Source: a virus
IMG/VR virus record: IMGVR_UViG_3300036857_000068
Location: 1 to 37,371 of that record
Length of the DNA stretch: 37,371 nt
Direction: 5' to 3' (one strand)
Below are positions 2,518 to 15,442 of this stretch, in pieces. Under the pieces are notes generated by a model. The model was not told the origin of the DNA, did not search any database, and saw only the letters and a list, made by a program, of their open reading frames with translations. The translations under genes were made by a program, and so were the position numbers. The first letter of the stretch is position 1. Every line of letters begins with the position of its first letter.

Positions 2518-2792
2518 AGCGCTGCGGGGCGTGTGGCCGCGAGCTCATCGGCGAGGACGTGCCCGTCGTGATCGGCGCCGCCGTGCTCAAGGCGCTCGTC
2601 GCTCGAGCGGGCGGCCGCGTCGAGTTCACGTCCCACGAGCTCGAGGCGGCCGCGACGCTGTGGGACACGAACGTCGTCGGCACGCCCGAGCGTATGGTCG
2701 TCGAGCTCACGGCGGCGCGCACGCTGCCCGACGGCGAGCACGTGCTGCTCGTCGAGCACCTCGTCGAGCCTCCGCACGAGGTCGACTCGTGA
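2514..2792 (+). CDS. Hypothetical protein, paralogue A
   Basis: The 92-aa protein starts at GTG 2514 within the integrase stop (GTGA). It opens with a CGACGREL motif that could be half of a zinc site. It then shares a core with the next gene: LKALVARAGGRVEFTSHELEAA and MVVELTA. The two are tandem duplicates. The function is unknown. Translational coupling to the integrase suggests expression in the same transcript. Confidence 0.7.
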   Translation: MKRCGACGRELIGEDVPVVIGAAVLKALVARAGGRVEFTSHELEAAATLWDTNVVGTPERMVVELTAARTLPDGEHVLLVEHLVEPPHEVDS

Positions 2793-3028
2793 GCGCAGAC
2801 CCGCGGCACGGCGACCCGATCAAGCTCGAGCAGGTCGCCGGCCTCGTCGTGACGCTCAAGGCGCTCGTCGCGCGCGCCGGCGGCCGCGTCGAGCTCACGA
2901 ATCCCGAGCTCGAGGCCGCCGCGAAGCTGCACGCGCACGTCGACGCGACGCCCGAGCTCATGGTCGTCGAGCTCGTCGACGGCGACCCGCCCGACGTCCC
3001 GCGATTCGACACGGCGGCCGAGCGTTGA
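2789..3028 (+). CDS. Hypothetical protein, paralogue B
   Basis: The 79-aa product starts at GTG 2789 (GTGA overlap with the previous stop). It is paralogous to the preceding gene: LKALVARAGGRVELTNPELEAA and MVVELVDGDPPD align without gaps, but the N-terminal Cys pair is missing. The function is unknown. The longer open frame from 2531 is a shadow of paralogue A. Confidence 0.68.
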   Translation: MSADPRHGDPIKLEQVAGLVVTLKALVARAGGRVELTNPELEAAAKLHAHVDATPELMVVELVDGDPPDVPRFDTAAER

Positions 3029-3408
3029 GAGGGCACCTCGACGAGCCCCGGCTGCTCGCCGCCGTCGACCTCATCCGGCGCACCGGTGCGAGCTCGTTTC
3101 AGATTCGCTACTCGGACGACGAGCAGCCGATCGTGTGGTTCGTCGTGTCGACGCACGTCGTCGACGGGCACGAGGTGCACGAGGTCGACGCGAGCCTCGA
3201 CCCGGTCCGGGCGGCGCTCCGACTGTGCGAGCGGCTCGTCGACGGCGGCCGCTGCGCGCATTGCGGCCGGCCGGCCGGGCTCGAGCCCGACTCGATCGAC
3301 ACGATGCCCGCCGACGACCTCATCTGTTGGTACCAGTACGACCCCGAGCTCGAGACGTTCCGTCGGGCATGCGAGGGCTCGACGAGCTCCGCGGGGGGGC
3401 CGCGATGA
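3025..3408 (+). CDS. Hypothetical protein with CxxC motif
   Basis: It starts at TTG 3025 (TTGA overlap) and encodes 127 aa. It contains two beta-rich stretches (SSFQIRYSDDEQPIVWFVVS) and one CAHC motif near residue 79 (RCAHCGRPAG), plus later single Cys residues that could complete a metal site. Similar small proteins occur in actinophage early regions, but no function is known. It is the last gene before the attP region. Confidence 0.65.
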   Translation: MRGHLDEPRLLAAVDLIRRTGASSFQIRYSDDEQPIVWFVVSTHVVDGHEVHEVDASLDPVRAALRLCERLVDGGRCAHCGRPAGLEPDSIDTMPADDLICWYQYDPELETFRRACEGSTSSAGGPR

Positions 3409-3493
3409 GCTCGCGCACGGCGCTCGGCCGCGTCGCGGCGCCGGTCCGTAACTCCCGGCGCCGCGGCGCCGCCGGCGCCGCCTGCATCCCGCC

Positions 3494-3514
3494 GTGTGGT
3501 CCCGGTGTGGTCCC
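3494..3514 (+). repeat. Paired arm-type repeat, left
   Basis: GTGTGGTCCC occurs at 3494-3503 and again at 3505-3514, an 11-bp spacing. The same nonamer GTGTGGTCC is found as another pair at 3737-3757 with the same spacing. The two pairs flank the tRNA-like core. This is the arrangement expected for arm-type integrase binding sites in attP. Confidence 0.7.
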
Positions 3515-3564
3515 GTCGGGCAGGGCTCGAGCTCGATTCCTGCAGTTTGCAGGGAGAACCTCAG

Positions 3565-3586
3565 CGGAGGGGGAGGGATTTGAACC
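3565..3586 (-). other. attP: attP core candidate: 3' end of a tRNA-Ser gene
   Basis: Read on the minus strand, these bases give GGTTCAAATCCCTCCCCCTC then CG. That is a tRNA T-loop (TTCAAAT), the 3' half of a T-stem, a 7-base acceptor strand and a G discriminator, as in tRNA-Ser. The 5' half of the T-stem does not pair properly and no CCA or tRNA body follows, so this is not a full tRNA gene. It is best read as the identity block through which the integrase joins phage and host DNA. Confidence 0.75.
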
Positions 3587-5239: not shown

Positions 5240-5473
5240 GGTGCAGCGAGGTCAGGCATGCAGCGGTGCGGCGCGGAATCGCGTGGTGCGGGCAGGGCAG
5301 GCAAGGCAGGGCAAGGCTAGATGGGGGTGGCGTGGTGCGGATCGGGACGGCAGGGATCGGCCCGGTTCGGATCAGCAGGGGCTCGGCATGGCACGGCGCG
5401 GCTAGGTACGGCGCGGCAGGGCCCGGTGTAGGTCCGGCACTGGCAGGGTCAGGTCGGGCTCGGCAGGGCGTGG
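5240..5473 (+). repeat. N3GG pentanucleotide array, copy 1
   Basis: About 40 units of the form NNNGG repeat with a strict 5-bp step. GG or a one-base variant falls at 5240, 5245 and so on to 5320; then from 5334 to 5379, 5385 to 5430 and 5442 to 5472, with one-base register shifts between blocks. Typical units are GGCAA, GGCAC, GGCGC and GGCTC. The + strand is G-rich throughout. No plausible gene covers it. A second array flanks the next gene on its other side. Confidence 0.85.
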
Positions 5474-5511
5474 GCGAGGGGGGTGATGCCTGACGCCGAT
5501 TCAGAGAGGCC

Positions 5512-5547
5512 GCGAGGGAGGCGGCTCGCAATGCCGACCTCCCTCGC
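5512..5547. terminator. Long hairpin between array and RAMP-like gene
   Basis: GCGAGGGAGG (5512-5521) pairs with CCTCCCTCGC (5538-5547). Inside it CGGC pairs with GCCG, leaving a TCGCAAT loop and one bulged A, so the stem reaches 14 bp. It has no T run, so it may be a leader structure or binding site rather than a terminator. It ends 32 bases before the next start codon. Confidence 0.5.
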
Positions 5548-5579
5548 TCAAACGCAATCCAACCGGAAAGGGATTCTAG

Positions 5580-6227
5580 ATGGCGACCAAGACGAAAACG
5601 ACCAAGACGAGCGGGGCCGGCAACGGCGGCATGCCGCAACGGTTCGGGATCGAGGTCCCGTACACGATCACGCTCCGACTCCGCGGTGTAACCCCGTTCC
5701 TGTTCAACCGCATGGATATCGAGGCTTACGACCGCGAGACAGGGCCGAGCGCGAAGCGAAAGCCGCGCGCGCGGCCCGAATACGAGTCGATGATATGGCG
5801 CACCGACGACGGAGCTCTCGGCCTCCCCGTCGCCAACGTGATCGGGTCCGTCGCCGCCGCCGGCATGTATTTCAAGAGCCCGATCGGCGGTAACGGAAGC
5901 GCGACGCCGACGCTACGCCGCGGGCTCGTCCCGGCATGCGAAATGGCGACGTTCGGCGTCACCGCATGGGACGTGATCGACTTTCGCAAGGCGAACCACG
6001 GCGACCGAAACCGGACGCCGAAACCGACGTATCGGCCGCGCCTCGAGGTCGGCTGGCTTTTGACGGCGGCGCTTTCCGTCACGACCCCCGAGCTCTACGG
6101 GCCCGCGAAGCTGCTCGAAATCGTCAGTCGCGCCGGGTCCGTGATGGGTGTCGGCGACGGCCGGACGATCGGGTTCGGCCGGTACGTGCTTGACGGGCAC
6201 GAGACAGTCGAGGGACTTCCGTGGTGA
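5580..6227 (+). CDS. RAMP-like phage protein of unknown function
   Basis: The 215-aa product starts at ATG 5580 after GGAAAGGGA. A first strand (TITLRLRGVTPFLFNR, residues 29-44) resembles the TGTTPLLMHN start of a widespread phage family found near recombination genes. Near the C-terminus, residues 190-200 read GVGDGRTIGFG. This exactly fits the GhGxxxxxGhG glycine loop of RAMP proteins (Cas5/6/7), with an Arg inside. A single-strand or RNA-binding role is inferred. The flanking N3GG arrays and the following Cas4-like and RecT-like genes suggest work in recombination or nucleic-acid protection. Confidence 0.6.
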   Translation: MATKTKTTKTSGAGNGGMPQRFGIEVPYTITLRLRGVTPFLFNRMDIEAYDRETGPSAKRKPRARPEYESMIWRTDDGALGLPVANVIGSVAAAGMYFKSPIGGNGSATPTLRRGLVPACEMATFGVTAWDVIDFRKANHGDRNRTPKPTYRPRLEVGWLLTAALSVTTPELYGPAKLLEIVSRAGSVMGVGDGRTIGFGRYVLDGHETVEGLPW

Positions 6228-6231
6228 GCTC

Positions 6232-6384
6232 GGCGAGGTTAGGCACGGTCTGTCAAGGCGTGGCGCGGGCGGGCTGGGTCAGGCTCGGAACGGTCAGTCA
6301 AGGTACGGCACGGCACGGCAGGGCCATGGCGAGGTCAGGCTCGGACCGGCACGACACGACGCGGCTCGGTCCCGCATGGAACGG
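6232..6384 (+). repeat. N3GG pentanucleotide array, copy 2
   Basis: About 30 NNNGG units. Nineteen successive units hold one register from 6232 to 6323 (only 6252 and 6297 read GT). After a one-base shift the pattern resumes at 6328 and continues to about 6384, into the first codons of the next gene. Units such as GGCAC, GGTCA and GGCTC match those of copy 1. Confidence 0.85.
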
Positions 6385-7185
6385 GGGCGCGGCTACGGCC
6401 GCGCCCCGGAGCTCGACGTGACCGCGAACGGTACGCCGAAGATCGTCAGGAAGAACCACGGCCGCGGCCACTCGTACTACGTCGACGGCGTCAAGATCCC
6501 CGGCGCCACGACCGTGCTCAACGGCGGCTACCCGAAGCACCTCGAGAAGTGGGCCGCCGAGTCGAGCGCGAACTACGCCGTCGACCACTGGGACGAGCTC
6601 GCCGAGATGCGCGTCTCGGAGCGGTTGAAGCTCATCACCGGCGCCCGGTTCGAGGACCGCGACCCGGCCGCGAGGCGCGGGCAGGACGTGCACGCGCTCG
6701 CGCAGCGGCTCGCCCGCGGCGACGACGTCCCGGTCCCGGACGAGCTCGTCGGGCACGTCGACGCGTACCTCGCATTCCTCGACGAGTGGGAACCGCGCGA
6801 GCTACTCGTCGAGGCGCCCGTCGCCAACCTCACCTACGGCTACTGCGGGACGCTCGACGCGATCGCCGACCTCGTCGACGAGACGCGATGGCTGTACGAC
6901 CTCAAGACGACCCGGAGCGGCGTCTACAAGGAATCGGCCTGCCAGCTTGCCGCGTACCGGTACGCCGAGTACGTGCTCGCCGGCGACGAGGTGCGGCCGA
7001 TGCCCGAGGTCGAGCGGTGCGGCGTCGTGTGGCTCAAGGCCGACCGCACGTTCGAGTTCGTCCCGGTCGAGGTCGACGAGGCGACGTTCGAGGTGTTCCT
7101 GTGCGCGCTGCGGATCGCGGCGTTCGACGCGCGCGACGACGTGATCGGGGCGCCGTTGCAGGCCGAGGGGCTCGAGCTCTTCTAG
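6376..7185 (+). CDS. Cas4/RecB-like PD-(D/E)XK exonuclease
   Basis: The 269-aa product has the Cas4/RecB nuclease motifs in order: RRGQDVH (H106), GYCGTLDAIADL (D161), LYDLKTTR (D175 and K177), then QLAAYRYAEY (Q190, Y194). Such nucleases resect DNA ends and pair with RecT-type annealing proteins, one of which is encoded at 8248. ATG 6376 was chosen; GTG 6418 is possible, and neither has a strong ribosome site. The frame is open upstream through the N3GG array, which should not be counted as coding. Confidence 0.85.
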   Translation: MERGRGYGRAPELDVTANGTPKIVRKNHGRGHSYYVDGVKIPGATTVLNGGYPKHLEKWAAESSANYAVDHWDELAEMRVSERLKLITGARFEDRDPAARRGQDVHALAQRLARGDDVPVPDELVGHVDAYLAFLDEWEPRELLVEAPVANLTYGYCGTLDAIADLVDETRWLYDLKTTRSGVYKESACQLAAYRYAEYVLAGDEVRPMPEVERCGVVWLKADRTFEFVPVEVDEATFEVFLCALRIAAFDARDDVIGAPLQAEGLELF

Positions 7186-7553: not shown

Positions 7554-8251
7554 ACCTCGAGACTGTGGAGATTCCGCGCGCCGGCGCGCGCGAGCAGGCC
7601 GCCGAGTACCGGCGGGCCGCGAAGCGACTGCCCGAGGGGTCGGAGCAGCGGCGCGAGTTCGAGGCGATCGCGCGCGCCTACCGGATCGCCGCCCGCGACG
7701 AGACACCGTTGATCGCGTTGACGCCGACGGTCGTCGCCGGCGGGCTCACGACCCGGAGCCGCGTCTACCGGCGCGGCCGTGACGAGGAGTACCGCGAGCA
7801 CTTCGCGCTACCCCGGCTCGCCGTGTGCCGCGCGTCGGCCGCGTTCGTCTACACGCGCGGCGTGCAGGGCAACGGCGGCCTCGAGCTCATCGACTCGCTC
7901 AACCGTCAGTCGAACTACCGGTCGGGCGTCGTCACGTTCGCGCGGGGCGCGTTCGAGCTCCCGACCGGTTACACGGCCGGGTGGTCGCTGCTCGGCGGCT
8001 GGCGCTCGGAGGCGTGGGCGGCAATGGTGCCGATCGTTCCGCCGAAGCACCGGCCGAGCGAGGGGCTGCTCGAGCGGTACCTCGTGCTGTGGGAAGTCGA
8101 CGAGTGGGCGTGGCAGGTGGTCCCGCGGCCGCCGGGCGACCCGGCGCTCCTGCGGCACGTCGGCGGCGATATCTACGCCGTGCTCGCCACGTGGAACCTC
8201 ACCGAGCTCGAGCGGCTCGTGCTCACCGGAAGGCAGGTGCCGGCGCGATGA
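7550..8251 (+). CDS. Hypothetical protein, 233 aa
   Basis: It starts at ATG 7550 (ATGA). Residues 1-60 are helical and basic (AREQAAEYRRAAKRLPEGSE). The rest is mixed alpha/beta with many Trp residues (TAGWSLLGGWRSEAWAAMVP and LVLWEVDEWAWQVVPRPPGD). No motif was recognised. It is translationally coupled to the RecT-like gene, so a part in the recombination module is a fair guess. Confidence 0.65.
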   Translation: MNLETVEIPRAGAREQAAEYRRAAKRLPEGSEQRREFEAIARAYRIAARDETPLIALTPTVVAGGLTTRSRVYRRGRDEEYREHFALPRLAVCRASAAFVYTRGVQGNGGLELIDSLNRQSNYRSGVVTFARGAFELPTGYTAGWSLLGGWRSEAWAAMVPIVPPKHRPSEGLLERYLVLWEVDEWAWQVVPRPPGDPALLRHVGGDIYAVLATWNLTELERLVLTGRQVPAR

Positions 8252-9336
8252 CCGTCGTCCCTTACACCGGCACGACCGCGACGACGCTCGAGCCGCAGAA
8301 CCTCGACGACGCGATGCGGCTCGCCGAGTTCGTGGCAAACACGGACTTTGTGCCGAAGAACCTGCGCGGCAACCCGCCCGCGATCCTCGCCGCGATCCTG
8401 TACGGCCGCGAGGTCGGGCTCGGCTCGATGCAGTCGCTCGCCAAGATCAGCGTCATCGAGGGGCGGCCGACGCTCGCGGCCGAGTCGCAGCGCGCGTTGA
8501 TCCTCGCCGCCGGGCACGAGCTCGTCGTCGAAGAGTCGACCTCGACCCGGTGCACGATCCGCGGCCGCCGCCGCAACGAGCGCCACTCGACGTCCGTCAC
8601 GTGGACGCTCGACGACGCGAAACGCGCGAACCTCGTCGGGAAGCAGAATTGGAGGCAGTACCCGGCCGACATGCTCGCCGCCCGCGCGCTCGCCCGGCTC
8701 GCCCGGCTCGTGTTCGCCGACGTCATCGGCGGGCTCGCCGCAACCGAGGAAGCGCTCGAGGGCGGCGACCCCGAGCCGACCGTCGAGCGGCCGGCCTCGA
8801 CACCGACCACGACGCGCCGTCGACGCGCCGTGCAGGCCGTACCCGAGCCCGAGCCTGCTCCCGCCGCAGAGCCGGAAGCAGATCCCGAGCCCGAGCCCGG
8901 CCACGCCGCCGACGACGTACCCGCCGACGATCCCCACGAACCGCCGGCGCCGATGCCGGCGCCCGAGCCGGCGCGCATGAACGCCGCCACACGCGGCAAG
9001 CTTTTCGCGCTGTTCGGCGAGCGCGGCATGGGCGGCAAAAGCGATGCCGACCGCACCCGCCGCCTCGAGTACGCGCGGCACGTGCTCGGCCGCGACGTCG
9101 CATCCTCGACCGAGCTCACCGCGGTCGACGCCTCGAGACTCATCGAGCAACTCGAGCGCGACCTGCCCGACCCGGTCGTCGACGCGCTCAACGCGCACCT
9201 CGACGCCGAGGCCGCCGAGGCCGCCGCCGGCGACGATGACCAGGCGCGCGACCTCGAGCGCGAGCTCGACACGATCCGCCACGACGAAACCAGACCCGCG
9301 CCCGAGCCGGGCGAGGACGGCGAGCCGACCGCGTAG
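8248..9336 (+). CDS. RecT-like ssDNA-annealing protein
   Basis: The 362-aa product starts at ATG 8248. Residues 1-160 resemble phage RecT-type recombinases: NLRGNPPAILAAILYGREVG, a QSLAKISVIEGRPTLAAESQ segment, and WRQYPADMLAARALARL. A low-complexity Pro/Glu/Ala linker (about 175-245) follows. A C-terminal helical domain (AATRGKLFALFGERGMGGKS) is also seen in other phage proteins of this type. The protein would anneal complementary strands and work with the Cas4-like nuclease upstream. Confidence 0.72.
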   Translation: MTVVPYTGTTATTLEPQNLDDAMRLAEFVANTDFVPKNLRGNPPAILAAILYGREVGLGSMQSLAKISVIEGRPTLAAESQRALILAAGHELVVEESTSTRCTIRGRRRNERHSTSVTWTLDDAKRANLVGKQNWRQYPADMLAARALARLARLVFADVIGGLAATEEALEGGDPEPTVERPASTPTTTRRRRAVQAVPEPEPAPAAEPEADPEPEPGHAADDVPADDPHEPPAPMPAPEPARMNAATRGKLFALFGERGMGGKSDADRTRRLEYARHVLGRDVASSTELTAVDASRLIEQLERDLPDPVVDALNAHLDAEAAEAAAGDDDQARDLERELDTIRHDETRPAPEPGEDGEPTA

Positions 9337-13676: not shown

Positions 13677-15442
13677 GCGAGGTCGTCGACGTGATGGTCG
13701 ATGCGGCCGAGCTCGTCGACGTGATTGAGGGGTCGTCGGTCGTCGTCGATGTTGAGCCGCAGGGGCCGGTCGTGGTCGATATCTCGGACGTGGCGGGGCC
13801 GCCGGGTATGCAGGGGCCGCCGGGGCCGGCGGGGCCGCAGGGGCCGCAGGGTGCGCCCGGCCCGGACGGCGCGCAGGGTGTGCAGGGGCCGGCGGGCGTC
13901 GACGGGGCGACTGGCGCGGAGGGGCCGGCGGGGCCGGCGGGAGCGGATGGAGCTCCGGGCGCGACGGGGCCGGCTGGGCCGCAGGGCGACGTCGGCCCGC
14001 AGGGCGCGCAGGGTGTGCAGGGGCCGCAGGGTGATCCGGGTCCGATCGGCCCGGAGGGGCCGCAAGGGCCGGCGGGCGCGGGCGCCGTCACCTACGCCTA
14101 CATGTTCGAGTCGACGCCGAGCGAACCGCCGACCGGGAGCGAGATTCGGTTCGACAACGCGACTGTGACGCTCGTCACTCGAGTGTGGATTCGGAACGTC
14201 ACCGCCGACGGCAACGACGTGCACAACGCGCTACTCTCGTTGCCGAACGCCGGGTCGATGCTGTACGTGCAGGACGAGGACGACTCGACGCGTTACGTCC
14301 GGTTCGATGTGACGGGCGACCCGGTCGATAAGACGAGCTACGTCGAAGTGCCGGTGCACTACGTGAGCTCGCAGGGCACGCTTCCCGAGCAGCGTGTGCA
14401 GGTCGTGTTCGCCGTGGCCGGGATCGCGGGGCCGGTGGGGCCGCCCGGACCGCAGGGGCCGACGGGGGCGCAGGGCGCGACCGGTGCGACGGGGGCGCAG
14501 GGGCCGGCGGGTCCCGCGGGCGCCGACGGGGCGACCGGGGCGACCGGAGCGACCGGGCCGCAGGGGCCGCAGGGCGACACCGGCGCGACCGGCTCGCAGG
14601 GGCCGGCGGGCTCGCAGGGTGTGCAGGGGCCGGCGGGTGTGCAGGGGCCGACGGGCCCGGCGGGCGCGAGCGGCGACGCGTGGGTCTACGGGACGGGCGC
14701 GCCGGCCGTGTCTGCCGATCCGATCGGGACGCTGTACCTCGACGGCGCCAATGGGAACGTGTGGGAACAGCAGGCCTCCGGATGGGTGTTCACCGGCATC
14801 ACGATCAAGGGGCCGATCGGCGCGACGGGGGCGCCCGGCTATCCGAGCACGAGCGGGCACGAGGCCGACGTGCTCACCGTGTCGGGCGGCGTGCCCGTGT
14901 GGGCCGACCCGGCCGCCGCGCCGAGCTACGGGACCAGCTTCCCGGCCTCGCCGGTCGACGGGCAGGAGCACGTGCTCGTCGACTCTGTGACGAACCCGAC
15001 CTATCAGTGGCGGTTCCGGTACAACGCTGGCTCGAGCTCCGCGTACAAGTGGGAGCTCATCGGCGGCACCGACGCGCGGGCGAGCGTGATGGGCAACGAC
15101 ACGACCACGACGACGAGCTCGTGGCTGAACCTCGGCACGGGGCCGACGTTCACGGTGCCGCGTGCCGGCGACTACTACGTCCGATGGGGCGTCGACATGA
15201 CTCACTCGGCCGCCGGCGGGCAGGGGGTCGCGGGGATCGCGCTCGGCGACGGCGTGCCGGCCGAGCCGACCGTGTGGCACAACGTCGCCGCCAATGGCTA
15301 CCGCGGCCCGAGCTCCGCTGAGACGTTCTATGCGGCCGTCGCCGCGGCGACCGTGCTCAAGATGCGATTCAACAACCAGTCCGGCGGGACGCTCACCGTC
15401 TCGAGGCGCTACATGGCCGTGCTCCCCTACCGCGTCTCGTGA
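13673..15442 (+). CDS. Collagen-like tail fibre
   Basis: The 589-aa product starts at ATG 13673 (ATGA). Two Gly-X-Y collagen-like blocks lie at about residues 42-138 and 252-333. A beta domain of about 110 residues separates them, and a C-terminal region (about 340-589) contains a likely trimeric head. Such fibres form long triple-stranded stalks and bind the host surface. The GXY blocks make the DNA look like a repeat array, but it is coding. Fibre genes usually follow the tail genes; here they lie before the terminase. Confidence 0.85.

What the first reader, a model, noticed from the sequence alone, without database searches (positions are those of the whole stretch)
5240..6384. Two long N3GG pentanucleotide arrays frame a RAMP-like gene
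About 40 units (5240-5473) and about 30 units (6232-6384) place a GG every 5 bp on the + strand, with long stretches in one unbroken register. Units vary in the first three bases, so it is not simple slippage. Both arrays lie directly beside the gene at 5580, and Cas4-like and RecT-like genes follow. A 5-nt step could match the footprint of an oligomeric single-strand binder, or form a ladder of two-tetrad G-quadruplexes in DNA or RNA. It may be a loading or recombination site for the module.
Basis: partly seen in the sequence, partly recalled or inferred. Interest (0 to 1): 0.85.

Follow-up and report, generated by a model that had tools for sequence, protein, structure and literature searches.

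The report
VIPR RNA-guide arrays beside vipr gene
The two odd repeat tracts are most likely guide-RNA arrays of a VIPR system, a recently described CRISPR-like weapon that phages appear to use to switch off genes of rival phages; this virus carries a previously undescribed copy of it.

Summary
Two + strand arrays (5240-5476, 41 units; 6232-6352, 22 strict units, weaker to about 6382) place GG every 5 nt, far above shuffles. Over 97 viral loci the true unit is GGYNN, with G nearly excluded at position 3. A scan for the DNA pattern alone returned loci of which 75 of 96 (window aside) encode a homologue of the 5580 gene next to the array, always on the same strand. An array-blind protein scan gave arrays beside 70 of 80 homologues. 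The 215-aa product is predicted to fold as a Csm3/Cas7 RAMP. In near-identical mycobacteriophages GGY is invariant while NN is hypervariable. All this matches VIPR (preprint 2026, PMC13142463): a Vipr RAMP loaded with GGY/NN vrRNAs that read DNA by non-contiguous pairing. The window is a new VIPR member in a temperate actinophage-like virus. Two 3' hairpins may be vrRNA tails. No homologue of the commonest neighbour gene (phrog_15946) was found, and the window guides found no credible target. A GGCA punctuation in relatives' arrays is absent from the preprint's main text.

The parts
5240..5476 (+). GGYNN array 1 (vrRNA template): one-register stretch 5240-5319, then runs from 5324 (10 units), 5380 (10), 5431 (2) and 5442 (7) separated by shifts
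5512..5547 (+). hairpin after array 1, -30.9 kcal/mol, z -3.9; possible vrRNA 3' tail or terminator
   Evidence: role inferred
5580..6227 (+). vipr gene, RAMP (Csm3/Cas7 fold), 215 aa
6232..6352 (+). GGYNN array 2 (vrRNA template), weaker in-register units to about 6382; GTCAA units at 6252 and 6297
6384..6407 (+). 10-bp hairpin with UACG loop after array 2, -27.9 kcal/mol, z -3.9; possible vrRNA 3' tail; relative L136 has a UUCG-loop hairpin after its array
   Evidence: role inferred
6418..7185 (+). Cas4/RecE-like PD-(D/E)XK exonuclease (start uncertain, 6379 or 6418); adjacent, probably the phage recombination module rather than part of VIPR
8248..9336 (+). RecT-like annealing protein, neighbour only

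Best explanation
This is a VIPR (Viral Interference Programmable Repeat) locus. The 5580 gene encodes the Vipr RAMP protein; the two arrays are templates for vrRNAs in which constant GGY triplets are expected to seat successive Vipr subunits and the variable NN dinucleotides are expected to pair with DNA in the pattern NNxNNxNN. The loaded complex would bind matching genes of competing phages or prophages and repress them. Shown here: array statistics, unit structure, reciprocal gene-array linkage, one strand orientation, predicted RAMP fold, hypervariable NN against invariant GGY in relatives. Taken from the preprint for other members: vrRNA expression, Vipr binding, the 1-nt skip rule, repression. 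Inferred for this window: transcription, guide boundaries, hairpins as vrRNA tails, targets.
For: Pattern-only scan of viral contigs returned arrays, and 75 of 96 array-bearing loci besides the window encode a homologue of the 5580 protein, all on the array's strand. Array-blind scan: 70 of 80 homologues have a same-strand array within 1.5 kb; shuffled loci score at most 9 against a threshold of 20. Unit GGYNN equals the published GGY/NN vrRNA motif, and Vipr is described as a small phage RAMP flanked by long intergenic sequences encoding vrRNAs. Predicted fold of the window protein (pLDDT 88.6) matches Csm3/Cas7 backbones (Foldseek E 2.9e-7; Z 13). Near-identical mycobacteriophages Brocalys and Quico: 3% difference outside arrays, GGY 1 of 108 positions, NN 39 of 72. 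Relative L006 has four repeat tracts each followed by nearly the same folded 49-nt tail, as published vrRNAs have. A relative's guide (L123) matches 16 of 16 NN bases with one-base skips, skip at codon wobble, in a helicase-like gene of five related loci.
Against: The window's long runs do not split cleanly into 9-16-unit guides with a repeated tail. No homologue of the commonest neighbour gene (phrog_15946) was found beside it. Decoded runs B, C and part of F found no credible target. The pooled skip-rule test over held loci was only weakly in favour of one skip (filtered exact matches: skip 0, 1; skip 1, 7; skip 2, 0; skip 3, 3; five of the seven are one homologous site) and the unfiltered test showed no excess over shuffled guides. 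The window protein is a long branch, and no RNA data exist for it.
Confidence: 0.93

Rival explanations
1. The arrays are RNA or DNA binding platforms for the RAMP protein without guide function, for instance autoregulation of the operon mRNA or a decoy, with NN free to drift.
For: Arrays lie on the coding strand between genes of the same direction; no target of the window guides was found.
Against: NN differs at over half of positions in phages 97% identical elsewhere, which is faster than drift and fits exchange of guides; the preprint shows guide function for other members.
Confidence: 0.05
2. The arrays are DNA elements for replication or recombination (single-strand annealing site or G-quadruplex ladder) used by the neighbouring exonuclease and RecT.
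For: Exonuclease and RecT-like genes follow; the sequence is G-rich with two-G runs.
Against: Linkage is to the RAMP gene, not to RecT (6 of 190 loci within 2.5 kb) or this exonuclease (1 of 190); the position-3 pyrimidine and invariant GGY with variable NN are unexplained.
Confidence: 0.015
3. Low-complexity or mutational artefact of a G-rich, 70% GC genome.
For: High GC and many GG in the window.
Against: Shuffles never approach the scores; same unit occurs in relatives whose arrays are 48-85% GC, always beside one gene family.
Confidence: 0.005

Closest known systems
VIPR systems (Vipr + vrRNA; PMC13142463, bioRxiv 2026.04.26.720920)
   Same: Small phage-encoded RAMP gene flanked by noncoding GGY/NN arrays on its own strand; in relatives GGY constant and NN hypervariable; folded element at the array end; no CRISPR array or other cas genes found.
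   Different: The window's arrays are long and nearly continuous with register shifts instead of clear 9-16-repeat units with a common tail; no phrog_15946 neighbour; followed by RecE/RecT-like genes. The type (I-VII) could not be assigned because the supplement was not readable.
Class 1 CRISPR-Cas RAMP backbones (type III Csm3, type VII Cas7)
   Same: RAMP backbone fold (Z about 12-13); in both, RAMP subunits are thought to space along a guide RNA.
   Different: No CRISPR-like array and no cas hit among ten tested window proteins; the guide is a 5-nt repeat code rather than a contiguous spacer.
phrog_4652 and phrog_15946 (phage families without function)
   Same: Array-linked homologues of the window protein score E down to 6e-52 to phrog_4652; the window protein itself only 0.009. 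phrog_15946 relatives are the commonest tested neighbour (102 of 190 vipr loci).
   Different: The library gives them no function, and the window lacks a detected phrog_15946 relative.

Membership tests
VIPR | Small single RAMP-fold protein (Vipr) | tested here: met
   215 aa, Csm3/Cas7 fold predicted; profile match to array-linked relatives E 5e-32
VIPR | vipr flanked by noncoding tandem GGY/NN repeats | tested here: met
   linkage both ways
VIPR | GGY conserved, NN hypervariable | tested here: met
   Met in relatives (pooled differences 3%, 7%, 25%, 48%, 51% for G,G,Y,N,N); the window has no close relative, so not tested on its own arrays
VIPR | vrRNA of 9-16 repeats plus a conserved structured 3' tail | tested here: inconclusive
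   Window runs of 2-19 units; hairpins follow both arrays; clear repeated tail in relative L006
VIPR | Targets read as NNxNN (1-nt skip rule) | tested here: inconclusive
   No credible target for window guides; one exact 16/16 case in relative L123
VIPR | Accessory vap gene | tested here: inconclusive
VIPR | vrRNA expressed, bound to Vipr, represses its target | not testable with these tools
   needs RNA-seq, pull-down and reporter assays
Class 1 CRISPR-Cas | CRISPR array and multi-subunit cas genes | tested here: not met
   no CRISPR-like repeat array; no cas hit among ten tested window proteins

The most novel reading that the evidence does not exclude
The window represents a VIPR variant with uninterrupted, register-shifted guide arrays ended by UNCG-type hairpins and with the adjacent RecE/Cas4-like exonuclease acting as its effector, so that targets are cut rather than only repressed.
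Probability: 0.06. Interest if true: 0.65.

Novelty: new member of a known kind. Interest (0 to 1): 0.48.

Why it matters
VIPR was reported only in 2026 and is argued to be more ancient than CRISPR. An unaided reader saw it in raw sequence, and the reciprocal pattern and protein scans here support the gene-array link independently of the discovery paper, with members in well-studied Gordonia, Mycobacterium, Felix O1-like E. coli and Pseudomonas phages. The GGCA punctuation of continuous arrays gives a testable rule for where guides begin and end.

Tried and rejected
Early literature searches by repeat wording found nothing; the VIPR preprint was found by searching a half-remembered name. Skip-rule test on all held loci: unfiltered counts equal the shuffled-guide control for skips 0-2; filtered counts favour one skip but rest mainly on one site. 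Window guides: run E has only 7 units, so its many hits are noise; 18-base matches to runs B and C fell in a repetitive fibre-like protein, a glycosyltransferase-like and a cyclotransferase-like protein (my reading of the sequences) and look like chance. No Rfam family, hammerhead included, in the window or nine relatives. Hairpins after arrays are enriched only in a subset of loci (12 of 141 with z below -2, against 3 before arrays and 0 random). The careful tree search did not finish; a quick tree puts the window on a long branch nearest L006 and L136 with weak support. No sigma-70-type promoter was seen near the locus, which says little for this kind of host. G-quadruplex and recombination-site readings rejected for the reasons given.

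Full report
Observation. Both arrays exist at the stated places on the + strand and nowhere else in the 37,371-base record, which is a whole virus record in the collection. A chain score for GG at 5-nt steps gives 44 and 31; shuffles of the window reach 11 and shuffles of the segments 13 and 11. Over 3792 units from 97 viral loci the consensus is GG-Y-N-N with G at 1.7% in position 3.

Linkage. Of the 97 loci kept as arrays (window included), 76 encode a homologue of the 5580 protein, every one on the array's strand and often with the array starting 3-20 nt after its stop codon, sometimes with a second array before it, as in the window. Some of the other 21 may be cut contigs; this was not resolved. 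The reverse test used a protein profile of one clade: 70 of 80 homologues have a same-strand array within 1.5 kb. Named phages with arrays include Gordonia UmaThurman and Ecliptus, Mycobacterium Brocalys and LittleE, E. coli wV8, Pseudomonas LESphi2, DSL-LC04 and Cy-LDV1; Medea1 and MakoManhole showed none at that threshold. Among 24 genome contigs with the gene, about half passed the threshold.

The protein. Array-linked homologues belong to phrog_4652 (no function) and match no Pfam family above its cut-off. The window protein itself is a remote member (E 0.009). Its model, pLDDT 88.6, matches Csm3 and Cas7 backbone subunits.

Evolution. Pairwise alignment of related phages shows differences at 2.8, 6.7, 25, 48 and 51% for the five unit positions. 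The clean cases are mycobacteriophages such as Brocalys and Quico, 97% identical outside the array, where GGY differs at 1 of 108 and NN at 39 of 72 positions. In distant pairs the alignment is partly anchored by GG, so those counts are weaker. This is the signature of a fixed scaffold carrying exchanged guides.

Identity. These features match VIPR (PMC13142463): a Vipr RAMP, vrRNAs of GGY/NN repeats with a structured tail, DNA recognition with one skipped base per unit, repression of competing phages. In relative L006, four tracts of about 13-17 units are each followed by nearly the same 49-nt folded tail. In relative L123 a guide matches 16 of 16 bases with one-base skips in a helicase-like gene (my reading of the translation) of five related loci, the skipped base falling on the wobble position. 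By my estimate one or two such 16-base matches would be expected by chance over all guides and held loci, so this is supportive, not decisive.

The window's own locus. Array 1, hairpin 5512-5547, vipr 5580-6227, array 2 from 6232, hairpin 6384-6407, then a RecE/Cas4-like exonuclease and, further on, a RecT-like protein. The terminase is actinophage-like (Streptomyces phage Kromp 42%) and there is an integrase. Likely mechanism: transcripts of the arrays load with Vipr, NN bases pair with NNxNN sites, and bound genes of rivals are silenced. Everything after the sequence features is inferred for this copy. The exonuclease may be unrelated; its homologue was found beside vipr only here.

Beyond the preprint's main text. 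In 76 loci with three or more such units, the 4-nt unit GGCA (479 of about 566 four-nt units) recurs mostly at 44, 49, 54, 59 or 64 nt, so guides of 8-12 units seem to be punctuated by GGCA. The window lacks it and instead shifts by one base or carries GTCAA units. 'GGCA' does not occur in the main text; the supplement, with its figure on staggered arrays, could not be read.

Verdict. A real feature and a new member of a known kind.

Noticed in passing
L166:7035-7660, L196:1296-1968, L168:4404-4974 and 73 other loci: Continuous VIPR arrays are punctuated by a 4-nt unit GGCA every 44-64 nt (5n+4), often followed by GTCNN; 479 of about 566 four-nt units are GGCA. Not in the preprint's main text.
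   Followed up: partly
L227:4637-4960 (UmaThurman gp40); L248:1323-1592 (Pipp gp43): Genes annotated as hypothetical proteins directly after vipr; in UmaThurman gp40 lies almost wholly inside the GGYNN array, so it is probably not a protein.
   Followed up: partly
window 13756-14649: GG every 9 bp inside the 13673-15442 gene: collagen-like tail-fibre repeat (tail fibre and collagen-like tail PHROGs), unrelated to the 5-nt arrays.
   Followed up: yes
window 2568-3028: Two adjacent small genes share a 76-nt stretch at 87% identity, a likely tandem gene duplication.
   Followed up: no
L006, reverse complement, 3081-3566: Four vrRNA-like tracts each followed by a near-identical 49-nt tail folding to about -22 to -24 kcal/mol; a nuclease-like gene (my reading) lies just upstream of the first array.
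   Followed up: partly
L123:1366-1405 against L125, L126, L128, L129, L130: Decoded guide of one Phycisphaerae vipr locus matches a helicase-like gene in related loci with one-base skips at codon wobble positions.
   Followed up: partly
L003, L004, L014, L027, L034, L035, L046, L048, L052, L061, L065, L067, L072, L073, L077, L079, L088, L093, L096, L103, L110: Array-bearing loci in which no vipr homologue was detected; truncated contigs, remote or lost vipr genes, or chance matches were not distinguished.
   Followed up: no
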